Source: Salinibacter altiplanensis
GTDB lineage: Bacteria > Bacteroidota > Rhodothermia > Rhodothermales > Salinibacteraceae
DNA length: 64,000 bases
Reading direction: 5' to 3'
NCBI RefSeq assembly: GCF_002894645.1
Contig: NZ_NCQY01000020.1
Span: forward strand, 19,138 to 83,137
Shown: piece after piece, positions 45,722 through 50,747 of the stretch
Layout of the letters: each line of letters starts with the position of its first letter
How positions within the stretch are numbered: position 1 is the first letter of the stretch
Notes under the pieces: model-generated
Database searches by the model: none
What the model saw: only the letters and a program-made list of their open reading frames with translations
Told to the model about the DNA's origin: nothing
Position numbers and translations under genes: made by a program

Positions 45722-46480
45722 ATGCCCGACTTTAGCGATACACTCGTCGACCGACTCGCTGAGGCCGATCATGTGGCCGTGCTGACGGGGGCAGGCATCA
45801 GCGCCGAGAGCGGCATTCCTACCTTTCGGGATCCGGGCGGGCTCTGGGACGAGTTCGACCCGCAGGAGCTCGCGAACGTGGAGGCGTTTCTCGACAATCC
45901 CGAGCTGGTGCAGGGCTGGTACCGGCACCGGCGCCAGGTGGTGGTGGAGGCCGAGCCCAACGCGGGCCACCAGGCCCTGGCGGACCTGGAGGCGCACGTG
46001 CCCTCGCTGGCCGTCGTGACCCAGAACGTCGACAACCTGCACACCCGCGCCGAGACTGGCACCGTCATCGAGCTGCACGGCAACATTACCGACAACTACT
46101 GCATGGACTGTGAACGGGCGGTCGGGGCGGAGGCGGTCGATGTCGCCATTCAGGAGGGCGAGCCGGCCCGCTGTCCGGACTGCGAGGGGCTCATTCGTCC
46201 CGACGTGGTCTGGTTTGGAGAGATGCTGCCGGCCGACGCGATGGCGCGGGCGGAAGCGGTGACCGAACGCGCCGACGTCTTCCTGAGCGTGGGCACGAGC
46301 GCCGTCGTGCATCCGGCGGCGCAACTGCCCGTCGCGGCGCGGGAACAGGGGGCCTACGTGGCCGAGGTGAATCCGGACACGACCGGCGTCACTGACGATG
46401 TCCACGAAACGATTCGGGGCCCCGCCGGGGACGTGCTGCCGGCCCTGGTCGACGCTGTCGCCGCTCGGGTGGACGTGTGA
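45722..46480 (+). CDS. cobB: NAD-dependent protein deacylase (sirtuin, CobB-like)
   Basis: A 252-residue sirtuin with VAVLTGAGISAESGIPTFRD (NAD binding), VTQNVDNLHTRAETGTVIEL and the catalytic His119 in ELHGNITDNYC. It has a four-cysteine zinc site (CMDC and CPDC), then LIRPDVVWFGEMLP, VGTSAVVHPAAQLP and a late VAEVNPDTTG. It removes acetyl or other acyl groups from lysines using NAD. It sits inside the Bat operon between the DUF4381-like gene and batA, and its stop overlaps a possible GTG start of batA, implying co-expression. The deacylated targets are unknown. Confidence 0.93.
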   Translation: MPDFSDTLVDRLAEADHVAVLTGAGISAESGIPTFRDPGGLWDEFDPQELANVEAFLDNPELVQGWYRHRRQVVVEAEPNAGHQALADLEAHVPSLAVVTQNVDNLHTRAETGTVIELHGNITDNYCMDCERAVGAEAVDVAIQEGEPARCPDCEGLIRPDVVWFGEMLPADAMARAEAVTERADVFLSVGTSAVVHPAAQLPVAAREQGAYVAEVNPDTTGVTDDVHETIRGPAGDVLPALVDAVAARVDV

Positions 46481-46548
46481 CGCCTGCTTGCGGCGCGCCC
46501 CTCGCGCTCCTTTTTGCTGATCCCGTCGGACCGGCGCGATTGCCCCCC

Positions 46549-47526
46549 GTGAGTTTTGTCAACCCCCAATTGCTGTGGCTGCTCCTCGCCGTGCCGGCGG
46601 TGGGGGGCTGGACGTGGTGGCGACGGCGGCGGACGGCGGGGCTTCGCTACAGTGACATAGAGCCTGTGCGTGGTGCGCCGGTCTCCTGGACCGTGCGCCT
46701 GCGGTGGCTGCCGGCGGCCCTCCGGATGGGGGCGCTCGCGCTCGGCATCGTGGCCCTGGCCCGTCCCCAAACCGAGGAGACCACGCGGACCCGCACGGCC
46801 GAGGGCATCGACATCGTGATGGTCCTCGACGCCTCCACGTCGATGCAGGCGGATGATTTCCAGCCCACCCGCTTCGAGGCGGCGCGCGAGGCGGCGGGGA
46901 CGTTCGTGGAGGGGCGTGTGTCCGACCGGGTGGGCCTCATCGTCTTTGCCGCCGAGGCGTACACACAGGTCCCCCTCACGCTCGACTACTCGTTCCTCCA
47001 GCGCATGCTCGATGACGTGGAGATCGGTGCCGTGGAGGACGGCACCGCCGTGGGCACCGCCCTCACGACGGCCGTTAATCGACTCAAGGACAGCGAGGCG
47101 GACAGCAAGGTGGCCATCCTGCTCACCGACGGCCGCAACAATCGGGGCCAGATGGATCCCCGTACGGCGGCCGAGGTTGCCCAGACGATGGGCGTACGGG
47201 TCTACGCGATCGGGGTCGGGTCGTCGGAAGACACAGATGCCCGGGAGGAAGCACTGCCCCAAGGCCCGCGGGACGAGTCGGCGGGCGTGGACGCGGAGAT
47301 GCTCCGGGCCATCTCCTCCTCGACCGGAGGGCGGTACTTTTCCGCGACGAACCGGGACGCTCTGGATCGCATCTACGCCGAGATCGACACCATGGAGGCC
47401 ACGCCGGTCGACGAGCGCGTCTACACGGACCGGACGGAGCGGTACCCGTGGTTCCTCCTGCCGGCCCTGGGGCTCGTGCTCCTGGAGGTCGGTCTCTCCG
47501 CGACCCTGTTCCGGCGCTTCCCCTGA
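46549..47526 (+). CDS. batA: VWA domain membrane protein BatA
   Basis: A 325-residue protein with an N-terminal membrane segment (SFVNPQLLWLLLAVPAVGGW), a second at about 50-70, and a von Willebrand A domain holding a complete MIDAS: DASTSMQ, then a Thr near GTAVGTAL and LTDGRNN. A C-terminal membrane helix follows (WFLLPALGLVLLEVGLSATL). Bat proteins are linked to oxygen tolerance or periplasmic quality control. GTG 46549 gives the family-typical start; a GTG at 46477 overlapping the sirtuin stop would add 24 atypical residues. batB would normally follow at once but is displaced by about 2.1 kb. Confidence 0.9.
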   Translation: MSFVNPQLLWLLLAVPAVGGWTWWRRRRTAGLRYSDIEPVRGAPVSWTVRLRWLPAALRMGALALGIVALARPQTEETTRTRTAEGIDIVMVLDASTSMQADDFQPTRFEAAREAAGTFVEGRVSDRVGLIVFAAEAYTQVPLTLDYSFLQRMLDDVEIGAVEDGTAVGTALTTAVNRLKDSEADSKVAILLTDGRNNRGQMDPRTAAEVAQTMGVRVYAIGVGSSEDTDAREEALPQGPRDESAGVDAEMLRAISSSTGGRYFSATNRDALDRIYAEIDTMEATPVDERVYTDRTERYPWFLLPALGLVLLEVGLSATLFRRFP

Positions 47527-47755
47527 ATATTGGCAATCGGAGGCAGGAAATCGATTGGGGGAAAGCCGCTCTACTGCTGGCTTCGTCCAGTGTGCTTTAT
47601 GAGAATGGGAGAGAGGGCGAGTGGGGAAATGGGGAGGTGCTGTAGGATAACGGGTAGGTCGCAATGAGGTCCTCTCTCTGTCAAATAGAAAGTACTTCAT
47701 GCTAAATTAATCTACAAATAGGAATAATCTAGTCAAAATGCTTTATCAGTGAGCA

Positions 47756-48901
47756 GTGAAATTGAGCAAATGCCCCCCTCAGATTATGGAAGAGCTTGCG
47801 TCAGAGCACAGTGACATTCTGTTCCGGGACACCTCCATGGAGGAGAAAAGGTCTGTACATACCAAATTTAAGCTAAGTGAGAAGGCCTTATCAGCACGTG
47901 AACGACTGGGTGATTATTGGGAAGTGACCCAAAAGGAAGTAGCCGAGGGAGTGGCAAAAAAGACGGATCAAATCATATCGAGAGAGGAGCGTGACGCTTT
48001 CGTCCGGAATGCCAGCAGTCGTGAAGGGGAGCTCACCCGAAAGACACACGTGGTAAGTGAGAAGACCCGGAATTTTCTCGAGCGGACTGCTAGAGAACTC
48101 AATCTTACCCGCGATCAATTCTTCGATGCTGCCCTCCGCCTCGTACACACAATGGTTCAGCAGAAGCGCAAGGAACAGATCGAGTGCCACGAGGAGCTTC
48201 TTCCGGCCCTGCGCGATCTTCTAGACCACACAGATAGAGTCCACACCAAAGTAGAGAAATTAATAGATGATGAAGATCCGTTGGGGGGTACTACCATTTT
48301 CGGGAAGCTAAAGCACCTCGAGAATATTGTTAGCGCTCTAGAAGAGGAAGTCCAGAGAGGGGAGCCTTTGGAGAGTGACTTTGATTTCTGGAGTTTTCCG
48401 TCTGAAGATGATTTTGTGAAAGGCTCGTTCGATCAGAGCGAGTCGGAAAGGAAGGATGAAAGTGATGATTACGGGCAGGCTTCGCTCTCCTCAGATGTTG
48501 TCCAGGTGGAGCCGGAGGCTCCCGAAGATTTGACCCACACAAAGGTTTTGAAGGCGGAATTTGGTGGTCAAAGGGTTTCGGATCCGAACTGGAACAAGCT
48601 GCTTAAGATCGCGCACGAAAAGGCGATAGAGGAAATGGGCTCCTTTCGTGAAGTCTCCCAAGTAACGAACAGTAATATCAAAGAGGGGAAGTTCGACAAG
48701 AAGGGGTTTCAGCATTATGTGACCTCAAGAAGCAAGATTCCTGACTTTTCGATTCAAGGCAAGAAGGCACGGACGGCGTGGCCCGATATCCTTCATCTCG
48801 CGCAAAATCTCAATACCAATGTCTTTGTGCGGTTCAAGTGGCGTGACAAGGAGAAAGCGGCTCATCCTGGAAAGATCGGAATTTTGCACTGGTCGGGATA
48901 G
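47756..48901 (+). CDS. Unknown protein of AT-richer insert, helical with distinct C-terminal domain
   Basis: Not recognised. The 381-residue protein (GTG 47756, or ATG 47786) is charged and soluble. Residues about 100-150 (SEKTRNFLERTARELNLTRD, QFFDAALRLVHTMVQQKRKE) look like a ribbon-helix-helix or coiled-coil region. An acidic linker of about 205-275 follows. The C-terminal domain (about 280-381: NWNKLLKIAHEKAIEEMGSF, IPDFSIQGKKARTAWPDILH, LNTNVFVRFKWRDKE) resembles modular end domains of mobile-element or restriction-associated proteins, without a firm match. Base composition is clearly poorer in GC than the flanking bat genes, indicating recent acquisition. Confidence 0.65.
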   Translation: MKLSKCPPQIMEELASEHSDILFRDTSMEEKRSVHTKFKLSEKALSARERLGDYWEVTQKEVAEGVAKKTDQIISREERDAFVRNASSREGELTRKTHVVSEKTRNFLERTARELNLTRDQFFDAALRLVHTMVQQKRKEQIECHEELLPALRDLLDHTDRVHTKVEKLIDDEDPLGGTTIFGKLKHLENIVSALEEEVQRGEPLESDFDFWSFPSEDDFVKGSFDQSESERKDESDDYGQASLSSDVVQVEPEAPEDLTHTKVLKAEFGGQRVSDPNWNKLLKIAHEKAIEEMGSFREVSQVTNSNIKEGKFDKKGFQHYVTSRSKIPDFSIQGKKARTAWPDILHLAQNLNTNVFVRFKWRDKEKAAHPGKIGILHWSG

Positions 48902-48957
48902 GACGAAGGAGAAGAGGTCGACATACATTCTTTTCCATTGTGTAGATTCAAAAGCTA

Positions 48958-49212
48958 ATGACACATACTCGACATGTGAAAGAACGGAGTCAGGGGCGGG
49001 GCATTCCGGCATCCGTCGTTGACCTCATCATCGAGTATGGGACCCCACAGCCCCAGCCAGACGGGACCTGCAAGTATGTACTCCGAGATCAGGATAAGAA
49101 GGCAGCGGCCAGTCAGCTTCGCCAACGACTTCAGCATCTCGAAAAGGCGATGGGCAAGGAGGCGGTCGTCGCCCAAAACGAGGTTATTGCCGCCTATCAC
49201 CGGAGCGATTAG
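48958..49212 (+). CDS. DUF4258-like small protein
   Basis: An 84-residue protein with HVKERSQGRGIPASVVDLII, EYGTPQPQPDGTCKYVLRDQ and a final VVAQNEVIAAYHRSD. This matches the layout of DUF4258-type proteins (HxxxRxxxRGI start, beta-rich end with a conserved HR). These small proteins often occur in mobile regions and may be related to RelE/barnase-like toxins, but their function is not established. It is the second gene of the AT-richer insert between batA and batB. Confidence 0.65.
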   Translation: MTHTRHVKERSQGRGIPASVVDLIIEYGTPQPQPDGTCKYVLRDQDKKAAASQLRQRLQHLEKAMGKEAVVAQNEVIAAYHRSD

Positions 49213-49237
49213 TCTGTTGCTTTGGCCTCTTTTTGCT

Positions 49238-49609
49238 ATGGACGTTTCTCTTGAAGGTATCAAATCCGAACTTTCGGCTGTAAAGGAGCAGATTTCTGAG
49301 GCTGAGGGTCGAATTGATAGGTTGAAGAAACAGTACCGTGATTGGTGGGAGAAGAGGGATCGGGCGGAGATTCAGAATCAGAAGGAAGCCCTCGCTCAAG
49401 CAGATCAGAAGGTCGAACAAATTGAGAAAAGTCTCACCCGGGCGAAAAACGCCGTCAAGCAGTTGACGGCGAGAGACGAATCGCTCACCGCACGGATACG
49501 AGAAGCAAAGCAGGCTGAAGACGGGGTGCCCACCCAGTTTGCCCTTCTAAGTAGGCTAGAACAGGTACGGAAGTTGAGAAGACTCAGCGAGATAGCAGAA
49601 GAGGAATAG
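49238..49609 (+). CDS. Coiled-coil protein of unknown function
   Basis: Not recognised. A 123-residue protein from ATG 49238, 25 bp after the DUF4258-like gene, is almost entirely heptad-like helix (LEGIKSELSAVKEQISEAEG, RIDRLKKQYRDWWEKRDRAE, QKVEQIEKSLTRAKNAVKQL). It ends acidic (EIAEEE). No signal peptide or membrane segment is present. Its close spacing suggests co-expression with the DUF4258-like protein, perhaps as its partner or antidote; this is inference. A basic upstream extension of the frame is unlikely to be used. Confidence 0.6.
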   Translation: MDVSLEGIKSELSAVKEQISEAEGRIDRLKKQYRDWWEKRDRAEIQNQKEALAQADQKVEQIEKSLTRAKNAVKQLTARDESLTARIREAKQAEDGVPTQFALLSRLEQVRKLRRLSEIAEEE

Positions 49610-49670
49610 CCGAGCCTCTGTTTTTCATTCCACCACTCCCCATTCTCCAAACTAAACTCCTCAATCCAAA

Positions 49671-50747
49671 GTGAACTGGTTGCATCCGGCGTACGCGTGG
49701 GCGCTCCTGCTCGTCCCGGCAGCGGTGGGGCTTTACGGGTGGGCGGCGCGTCGGCGCCGGGCGGACCGGGCACGGTTCGGGCACCCGGCGACCGTGCAAC
49801 AGCTCGCAACGACCCTGCGCCCACGCCGCCGACGGTGGAAGGCCGGCCTGGTGGTGGGGGCGCTTCTCCTCGGGGCCGTCGCCCTGATGGGGCCTCGCTG
49901 GGGCACGCAGGTGCGCACGGTGGAGCGCCGGGGCCTCGACCTCGTGGTGGCGCTGGACGTGTCGGCCTCGATGCGGGCCCAGGACGTTTCCCCGAGCCGC
50001 CTCCGGCGGGCGAAGAATGAAATCCGCACGCTGGTGGATGATCTGTCGGGCGACCGGGTGGGGCTTGTGCTCTTTGCGGGCACCGGGTTCGTGCAGGCGC
50101 CCCTCACGACCGACTACGATGCGTTCCGCCTCTTCCTCAACGCCGCGGCGCCCGATCAGATCTCGACGCCGGGGACCGATGTGGGGAGGGCCGTCGACGC
50201 CGGCCTCCAGGCCTTCGGGGCCTCCCGCCCAGGGGACGACACGACGGCAACTCCGGAGGCGCCGCGCCCCCGCGCGCTCCTGCTCGTATCGGACGGGGAG
50301 AACCACACCGGCGACCTCAATGCCGCCCGGCAGCGAGCCGAAGACGCCGGCGTCACGCTTCTGACTGCGGGCATTGGGACCGAGGAGGGAGCCCGGATTC
50401 CGGTCTACGAAAACGGGCGGCGGGTCGACTACAAGCGAAACCGCACGGGGGCGGTCGTGCGGAGCCGTCTGCGGGAGGCCCCCCTGCGGCGCCTCGCCCG
50501 GTCGGGGGCGTACTTTCGAATCGGCGCCGCCTCCAGTGCCCTGTCCGACGTGCCGGCGGCGCTCCGGCAGGTCGGAGCCTCGACATACGACGCCGACCGG
50601 TTTGCCGACTACGAGGAGATGTACCAGTGGCCCCTGGCGGCGGCCCTGGGGCTCCTGCTCGCCGGACGCCTCCTCCCGGCCCGGCGGCGCCCTCCCTCAG
50701 GCACGAGACGTGAGGAAGGGCGCGGCGGGACCCAGCATCCCGGGTAG
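49671..50747 (+). CDS. batB: VWA domain membrane protein BatB
   Basis: A 358-residue protein with the start NWLHPAYAWALLLVPAAVGL, a second membrane helix at about 60-78 (GLVVGALLLGAVALMGPRWG) and a VWA domain with MIDAS residues DVSASMRAQ, TDVGRAVDA and VSDGENH. A final helix (LAAALGLLLAGRLL) follows. GTG start at 49671. It probably pairs with BatA in the membrane. The 62 bp before it belong to the AT-richer insert, which separates it from the promoter region of the bat operon. Confidence 0.9.
   Translation: MNWLHPAYAWALLLVPAAVGLYGWAARRRRADRARFGHPATVQQLATTLRPRRRRWKAGLVVGALLLGAVALMGPRWGTQVRTVERRGLDLVVALDVSASMRAQDVSPSRLRRAKNEIRTLVDDLSGDRVGLVLFAGTGFVQAPLTTDYDAFRLFLNAAAPDQISTPGTDVGRAVDAGLQAFGASRPGDDTTATPEAPRPRALLLVSDGENHTGDLNAARQRAEDAGVTLLTAGIGTEEGARIPVYENGRRVDYKRNRTGAVVRSRLREAPLRRLARSGAYFRIGAASSALSDVPAALRQVGASTYDADRFADYEEMYQWPLAAALGLLLAGRLLPARRRPPSGTRREEGRGGTQHPG

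What the first reader, a model, noticed from the sequence alone, without database searches (positions are those of the whole stretch)
47527..49670. Three-gene AT-richer cassette inserted between batA and batB
The Bat operon is normally contiguous, but here about 2.1 kb of clearly less GC-rich DNA separates the two VWA genes. It encodes a 381-residue protein with an RHH/coiled-coil-like middle and an unknown C-terminal domain, a DUF4258-like small protein and a coiled-coil protein only 25 bp further. The last two look like a toxin/partner-type pair. All three read with the operon, so read-through to batB may continue. This is the strongest candidate for an undescribed accessory system in the window.
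Basis: partly seen in the sequence, partly recalled or inferred. Interest (0 to 1): 0.65.

Follow-up and report, generated by a model that had tools for sequence, protein, structure and literature searches.

The report
Three-gene insert splitting batA and batB
A halophilic bacterium carries three extra genes wedged into an otherwise intact stress operon; the first is a one-off fusion of a genus-specific, probably DNA-binding protein with a widely travelling domain, and together with the second gene it looks like a toxin-antitoxin-type accessory module, although its function is untested.

Summary
A 2.1-kb block with 50% GC (GC3 0.55-0.62 against 0.86 in batA and batB) separates batA from batB. 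All nine same-genus genomes in which batA was found have the two genes 68 to about 135 bp apart, and none of the 12 same-genus genomes carries gene B, gene C or gene A's C-terminal half. So it is a species- or strain-level insertion.

Gene A (start corrected to ATG 47786, 371 aa) is a fusion. Its N-half is a protein known only from this genus (5 of 13 genomes; no other genus among the 296 phylum genomes searched) with two weakly supported ribbon-helix-helix-like repeats. Its C-half is a domain without a Pfam family, named by NCBIfam after a 'T4SS effector SepA'. Elsewhere that domain sits behind an RHH-like N-terminus, on mobile DNA and sometimes beside defence genes.

Gene B is a divergent DUF4258 (RelE-like, BECR) protein; relatives often lie beside a DNA-binding gene or an N-6 methylase. 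Gene C is a coding coiled-coil orphan.

Best guess (0.4): an acquired A+B toxin-antitoxin-like unit.

By-product: 20 of 23 standalone C-domain relatives carry a paired palindromic operator.

The parts
46477..47526 (+). batA (VWA protein), gene upstream of the insert, intact; relatives align from about residue 24
   Evidence: Pfam VWA 9e-26, BatA 1e-12; 67-90% identical in the genus
47527..47620 (+). zone holding the left end of the insert (exact base not resolvable); no terminator beyond chance
   Evidence: relatives have only 68 to about 135 bp between batA and batB; scan
47621..47785 (+). low-GC (about 43%) upstream region of gene A, likely its own promoter; the operator of the C-domain family is absent
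47852..48145 (+). gene A N-half: two RHH-like repeats (residues 33-66 and 96-130 of the 381-aa numbering), weakly supported; followed by a predicted helical/coiled-coil stretch to about residue 200
   Evidence: hhalign against RHH-type N-termini with shuffles; no Pfam RHH hit
48428..48892 (+). gene A C-domain (residues 225-379), predicted alpha/beta fold at pLDDT about 90-97 over residues 260-380
   Evidence: NCBIfam NF047386 E 6e-39, 133.7 bits against cut-off 110; phrog_24708; AlphaFold2
48958..49212 (+). gene B, 84 aa, divergent DUF4258-like protein (putative RelE-like BECR toxin)
   Evidence: tblastn relatives on plasmids E 1e-5 and weaker; invariant H6, R10, R14, G28 kept; Pfam sub-threshold
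49238..49609 (+). gene C, 123 aa, coiled-coil protein without relatives; coding by composition
49610..49670 (+). zone holding the right end of the insert, directly before the batB start
49671..50747 (+). batB (VWA protein), intact; starts GTG-AAC where most relatives have ATG-GAT/GAC
   Evidence: Pfam VWA_2 1.5e-15

Best explanation
A three-gene accessory unit inserted between batA and batB in this species or strain, without breaking either gene. Genes A and B most likely work as a type II toxin-antitoxin-like pair in antitoxin-first order. A would be the DNA-binding autorepressor and antitoxin: its N-half (two RHH-like repeats plus a helical stretch) would bind the promoter, and its C-domain would bind a partner, possibly B, or a second ligand. 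B would be a DUF4258-clade BECR/RelE-like protein that inhibits the cell (target unknown) when free. C is either a third component or a passenger. SHOWN: the insertion, the coding capacity, A's fused architecture, B's link to the DUF4258 clade through intermediates, and the recurrence of DNA-binding genes beside relatives of B. INFERRED: DNA binding by A, toxicity of B, the A-B interaction, transcription from its own promoter with read-through into batB, and horizontal origin.
For: Insertion: batA and batB are adjacent in nine same-genus genomes, and B, C and A's C-half are absent from the rest of the genus; composition. A's architecture: the N-half matches the whole roughly 205-aa genus protein (50% identity to G005), which ends where the linker begins; C-domain NF047386. 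RHH-like repeats: repeat 1 in register with the N-terminus of the protein translationally coupled to a B relative in Skermanella (0 of 60 shuffles as good) and with an annotated CopG protein (0 of 60); repeat 2 with an RHH-like neighbour of an Aeromonas B relative (0 of 60). B: DUF4258 (PF14076) is listed as a BECR-fold toxin family, target unknown, antitoxin-first gene order (PMC11980606). Relatives of B lie beside HTH/RHH genes: Thauera x2, Nitrosospira, pM02_c6, G279, Skermanella stibiiresistens, Rhodovastum, Aeromonas caviae. Standalone relatives of A's C-domain carry a dedicated operator pair, as expected of autoregulators.
Against: No instance elsewhere of an A-type protein next to a B-type gene; the two genomes found to hold both have them at separate loci. 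B misses the Pfam threshold, its model is poor (pLDDT 67), and it reads IAAY where most of its closer relatives read ITTY. RHH in A rests on weak profile scores only, and several panel members did not match; AlphaFold2 (no N-half alignment) gives all helices at low confidence, and Pfam finds no RHH. B's closest relatives often sit upstream of an N-6 methylase rather than downstream of a regulator, which fits an R-M-linked role as well as a toxin.
Confidence: 0.4

Rival explanations
1. Passenger DNA: three unrelated genes left by one or more transfer events (plasmid or island fragment) at a tolerant operon junction, with no joint function.
For: The trio is found nowhere else; gene C is an orphan; A's N-half is genus-specific while its C-half and B have relatives mainly in Proteobacteria, so the block is a mosaic. 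A different-genus genome (G014) carries an unrelated 3.1-kb insert at the same junction, so the junction tolerates inserts. Salinibacter accessory DNA is typically lower in GC (PMC6060240).
Against: All three genes are intact, co-oriented and close (56 and 25 bp), with coding-like codon-position composition; a relic would be expected to decay.
Confidence: 0.33
2. R-M or defence accessory: A's C-domain and B are small DNA-modification-linked factors (regulators or substrate-recognition/anti-self factors) that normally work with methylases or helicases, here separated from them.
For: C-domain genes 57 bp upstream of SNF2 genes in Thioclava and Ketogulonicigenium, with methyltransferase and DEAD/DEAH helicase genes following in the latter, and beside AbiE and N-6 methylase in Mesorhizobium; B relatives 1-9 bp upstream of N-6 methylase / type I M/S genes in Sulfuricurvum, Synechococcus and Aromatoleum, and 189 bp in Oscillatoria, and near ZorA.
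Against: No R-M or helicase gene in the insert; no PADLOC family fits; most chromosomal C-domain loci have no constant partner.
Confidence: 0.2
3. A secreted or injected effector locus, as the NCBIfam name of the C-domain (T4SS effector SepA family) would suggest.
For: NF047386 score above the curated cut-off. Brucella SepA is described as a 130-aa protein without known domains from a horizontally acquired region (PMC4602199).
Against: Family members seen here are RHH-like-plus-C-domain proteins with their own operator pair in mostly free-living bacteria; the domain is here fused to a genus protein in a free-living halophile. The name describes one member, not the family's function.
Confidence: 0.02

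Closest known systems
NCBIfam NF047386 (named 'T4SS effector SepA family')
   Same: C-domain of gene A scores 133.7 bits against a cut-off of 110; invariant S-Q-G-x-x-A...W and F-x-W-R...A...P motifs kept
   Different: Standalone members are about 185-190 aa with an RHH-like N-terminus (VVRxxDxTF...) and a paired ATATGTWACATAT operator; here that N-terminus is replaced by a genus protein and the operator is absent
Genus protein next to rpe, a CsoR-like gene and the SRP RNA (L002-L006; own copy G000:C19)
   Same: Gene A residues 11-211 align over its full length, 39-50% identical
   Different: The genus protein lacks the C-domain, has higher GC in the copies measured (0.60-0.63) and a conserved chromosomal place; gene A is no closer to its own-genome paralogue (43%) than to that of G005 (50%)
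DUF4258 (PF14076), BECR-fold toxin family of type II TA systems (PMC11980606)
   Same: H..R...R.I...G pattern, size, relatives on plasmids, DNA-binding neighbour upstream in several relatives
   Different: Below the Pfam threshold; candidate antitoxin is a 371-aa fusion rather than a small HTH/RHH protein; T of the ITTY motif lost
Salinibacter ruber genomic islands and indels (PMC6060240)
   Same: Lower-GC, strain-specific accessory DNA in an otherwise collinear chromosome
   Different: Only 2.1 kb, in the middle of a conserved operon, with no mobility gene

Membership tests
Type II toxin-antitoxin module | two adjacent co-oriented genes, small toxin after antitoxin | tested here: met
   A then B, 56 bp apart, same strand; antitoxin-first is the order listed for DUF4258
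Type II toxin-antitoxin module | antitoxin with DNA-binding domain | tested here: inconclusive
   weak in-register RHH-like matches; no Pfam RHH hit
Type II toxin-antitoxin module | toxicity neutralised by the partner | not testable with these tools
   needs expression in a laboratory strain
Type II toxin-antitoxin module | the same pair recurs in other genomes | tested here: not met
   no A-type C-domain or A-type N-domain beside a B-type gene found; only the generic pattern of a DNA-binding gene beside a DUF4258-like gene recurs
DUF4258 (PF14076) | score at or above the Pfam gathering cut-off | tested here: not met
   12.9 bits against 25; linked through relatives at 24.0 and 27.2 bits
DUF4258 (PF14076) | BECR fold | tested here: inconclusive
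NF047386 (SepA family) | score at or above the curated cut-off | tested here: met
   133.7 against 110 bits over residues 225-379
NF047386 (SepA family) | RHH-like N-terminus as in standalone members | tested here: not met
   N-half is a different, genus-specific domain; the model is matched from position 33 on
NF047386 (SepA family) | secretion through a type IV system (the function in the name) | not testable with these tools
   reported for one Brucella protein only (PMC4602199); that effector was named, not fetched
Known anti-phage defence system (PADLOC) | match to a defence family | tested here: not met
   only coiled-coil background matches for C and E 0.03 for A
Transposon or integron cassette | mobility gene, terminal repeats or target duplication | tested here: not met
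   none seen in the insert; attC sites not searched specifically

The most novel reading that the evidence does not exclude
A new class of regulator-effector protein: the NF047386 C-domain is a portable module that swaps between different, probably DNA-binding, N-domains (a single RHH-like head with its own paired operator in Alphaproteobacteria, a double RHH-like genus protein here). Together with a DUF4258-like partner it would form an undescribed three-gene toxin-antitoxin or defence-linked unit.
Probability: 0.15. Interest if true: 0.55.

Novelty: new variant of a known kind. Interest (0 to 1): 0.38.

Why it matters
It shows a conserved stress operon (batA-batB) taking up accessory genes without being broken, and a genus-specific protein gaining a far-travelling domain. 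It also indicates that a domain named after a pathogen effector belongs, in most of the genomes seen here, to small RHH-type proteins that look autoregulated by their own paired operator. That corrects a misleading annotation and gives a directly testable binding site.

Tried and rejected
Gene B + gene C as toxin and partner: C has no relatives and never accompanies relatives of B. Phage origin: no phage-record match for A or B; viral contigs gave none for A or B queries and two distant C-domain hits. Defence family: no PADLOC fit. Operator of the C-domain family upstream of gene A: absent, 0 matches with up to 3 mismatches in the whole window. Known solved structures: no significant match for A's halves or B. 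Kinship of A's N-half to the RHH protein next to the B relative on pM02_c6: not supported by profile comparison. Coiled-coil database matches of C (Laminin, SMC and the like) were treated as composition, not homology. A viral scan with the DUF4258 alignment and a taxonomic search centred on another genome were not possible.

Full report
What was checked. The window lies in a genome of 3.59 Mb in 30 contigs (window = G000:C15:19138-83137). Gene B and gene C are coded in the + direction with gene A; the spacings are 56 bp and 25 bp. GC by codon position (A 0.57/0.35/0.56, B 0.69/0.40/0.61, C 0.61/0.36/0.54) has the low second position typical of coding sequence, so gene C is probably real although nothing resembles it.

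Is it an insertion? Yes. In the nine same-genus genomes where batA was found, batB follows after 68 to about 135 bp, including three relatives about 90% identical in BatA. No same-genus genome encodes B or C or the C-half of A, by single-sequence search or, for A, by profile. Both flanking genes are intact. The ends cannot be placed to the base, because spacer sequence is not conserved and no strain of the same species was available; no terminal inverted repeats, target duplication or mobility gene was seen. A genome of another genus in the same family, G014, has an unrelated 3.1-kb stretch between batA and batB, so this junction tolerates inserts.

Gene A. Genus relatives begin at the methionine encoded at 47786, which makes the protein 371 aa. 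Residues 11-211 (381-aa numbering) match, over its whole length, a protein of about 205 aa that occurs in 5 of 13 genomes of the genus, one copy in this same genome, at a conserved place next to ribulose-phosphate epimerase, a CsoR-like gene and an SRP-RNA-like sequence (gene names by inspection). A profile of it finds no other genus among 296 genomes of the phylum. Gene A is 39-50% identical to these, and no closer to its own-genome paralogue (43%) than to G005 (50%), so it is an old paralogue or comes from an unsampled relative. The N-half contains two segments with the look of ribbon-helix-helix units. Profile comparison gives in-register matches that beat all shuffles for repeat 1 against a Skermanella neighbour protein and an annotated CopG protein, and for repeat 2 against an Aeromonas neighbour protein; other panel members did not match. 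Pfam finds no RHH, so this is suggestive, not shown.

The C-half (residues 225-379) belongs to NCBIfam NF047386 (E 6e-39, above cut-off) and phrog_24708, and has no Pfam family. The family name comes from a Brucella effector (PMC4602199; the link of name to that paper is my inference); I did not fetch that protein. In genome and plasmid records the domain occurs in proteins of about 185-190 aa with an RHH-like N-terminus, mostly in Alphaproteobacteria and one Balneolaceae genome, with no constant neighbour, but several times near SNF2 helicase, methyltransferase or AbiE genes.

An unplanned result bears on the function of that family. Of 23 standalone members, all have at least one copy within 3 mismatches of the palindrome ATATGTWACATAT in the 120 bp before the start, and 20 have two copies 32-36 bp apart; shuffled sequences give a mean of 1.2 and 0.03 loci. 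Some of these loci are duplicates or close relatives (for example L040 and L069 are the same plasmid), so the independent number is somewhat lower, but the genera are diverse. In 10 of 15 genomes tested the exact pair occurs, each time once per genome. This is the pattern of a dedicated autoregulatory operator. The window has no such site, consistent with a different head on gene A.

Gene B. Its relatives are DUF4258-like proteins on plasmids. B misses the Pfam cut-off but keeps the four invariant residues H6, R10, R14 and G28 of the aligned set and is linked by relatives at 24.0 and 27.2 bits. DUF4258 is listed among BECR-fold toxins of type II toxin-antitoxin systems, target unknown, antitoxin first (PMC11980606). 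Neighbours of relatives fall into two patterns. A DNA-binding gene lies adjacent, usually directly upstream, in Thauera (two), Nitrosospira, pM02_c6, G279, Skermanella stibiiresistens, Rhodovastum and, downstream, Aeromonas caviae (domains, some RHH calls by inspection). In Sulfuricurvum, Synechococcus, Aromatoleum and Oscillatoria the gene lies 1-189 bp upstream of an N-6 methylase or type I M/S gene. So B is a member of a clade at home on plasmids and near R-M genes.

Interpretation. The most economical functional reading is an A+B toxin-antitoxin-like unit in antitoxin-first order with C unexplained. I give it 0.4, because the pair itself is found nowhere else and neither DNA binding nor toxicity has been shown. 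The block is a mosaic of a genus-only head, a widespread C-domain, a plasmid-type gene B and an orphan, so a passenger fragment (0.33) and an R-M or defence accessory (0.2) remain serious rivals. The effector reading suggested by the database name is very unlikely.

Verdict. A true insertion, absent from all sister species examined, with ordinary-looking but previously unlinked parts; a new variant of a known kind. The by-product on the operator of the NF047386 family may be of more general use than the cassette itself.

Noticed in passing
L056-L079, L039-L043 (upstream of standalone NF047386 genes): Paired 13-bp palindromes ATATGTWACATAT, 32-36 bp apart, directly upstream of the gene in 20 of 23 loci; the exact pair occurs once per genome in the 10 genomes that have it. 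Looks like a dedicated autoregulatory operator; the family name 'T4SS effector SepA' is probably misleading for most members.
   Followed up: yes
L126 (G014:C3:248800-254500): A different genus of the family carries an unrelated 3.1-kb, lower-GC stretch (coiled-coil, STAS-like and nitrilase-like ORFs by inspection) between batA and batB, so the junction may be a recurrent insertion site.
   Followed up: partly
L101, L102, L104, L115: DUF4258-like small genes 1-189 bp upstream of N-6 methylase or type I M/S genes in Sulfuricurvum, Synechococcus, Aromatoleum and Oscillatoria plasmids.
   Followed up: no
L053, L091, L109, L052; L050, L051, L107: DUF4258-like genes repeatedly sit beside GIY-YIG-like ORFs (four loci, two of them by inspection only), and beside a conserved uracil-glycosylase-like ORF (three loci, by inspection).
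   Followed up: no
L086: A DUF4258-like ORF lies among ORFs that look like CRISPR-associated genes in a genome of the same class; function names by inspection only.
   Followed up: no
G000:C19:245303-245932 (L006) and L002-L005: Genus-restricted protein of about 205 aa at a conserved place between a CsoR-like gene and an SRP-RNA-like sequence, without any Pfam family.
   Followed up: partly
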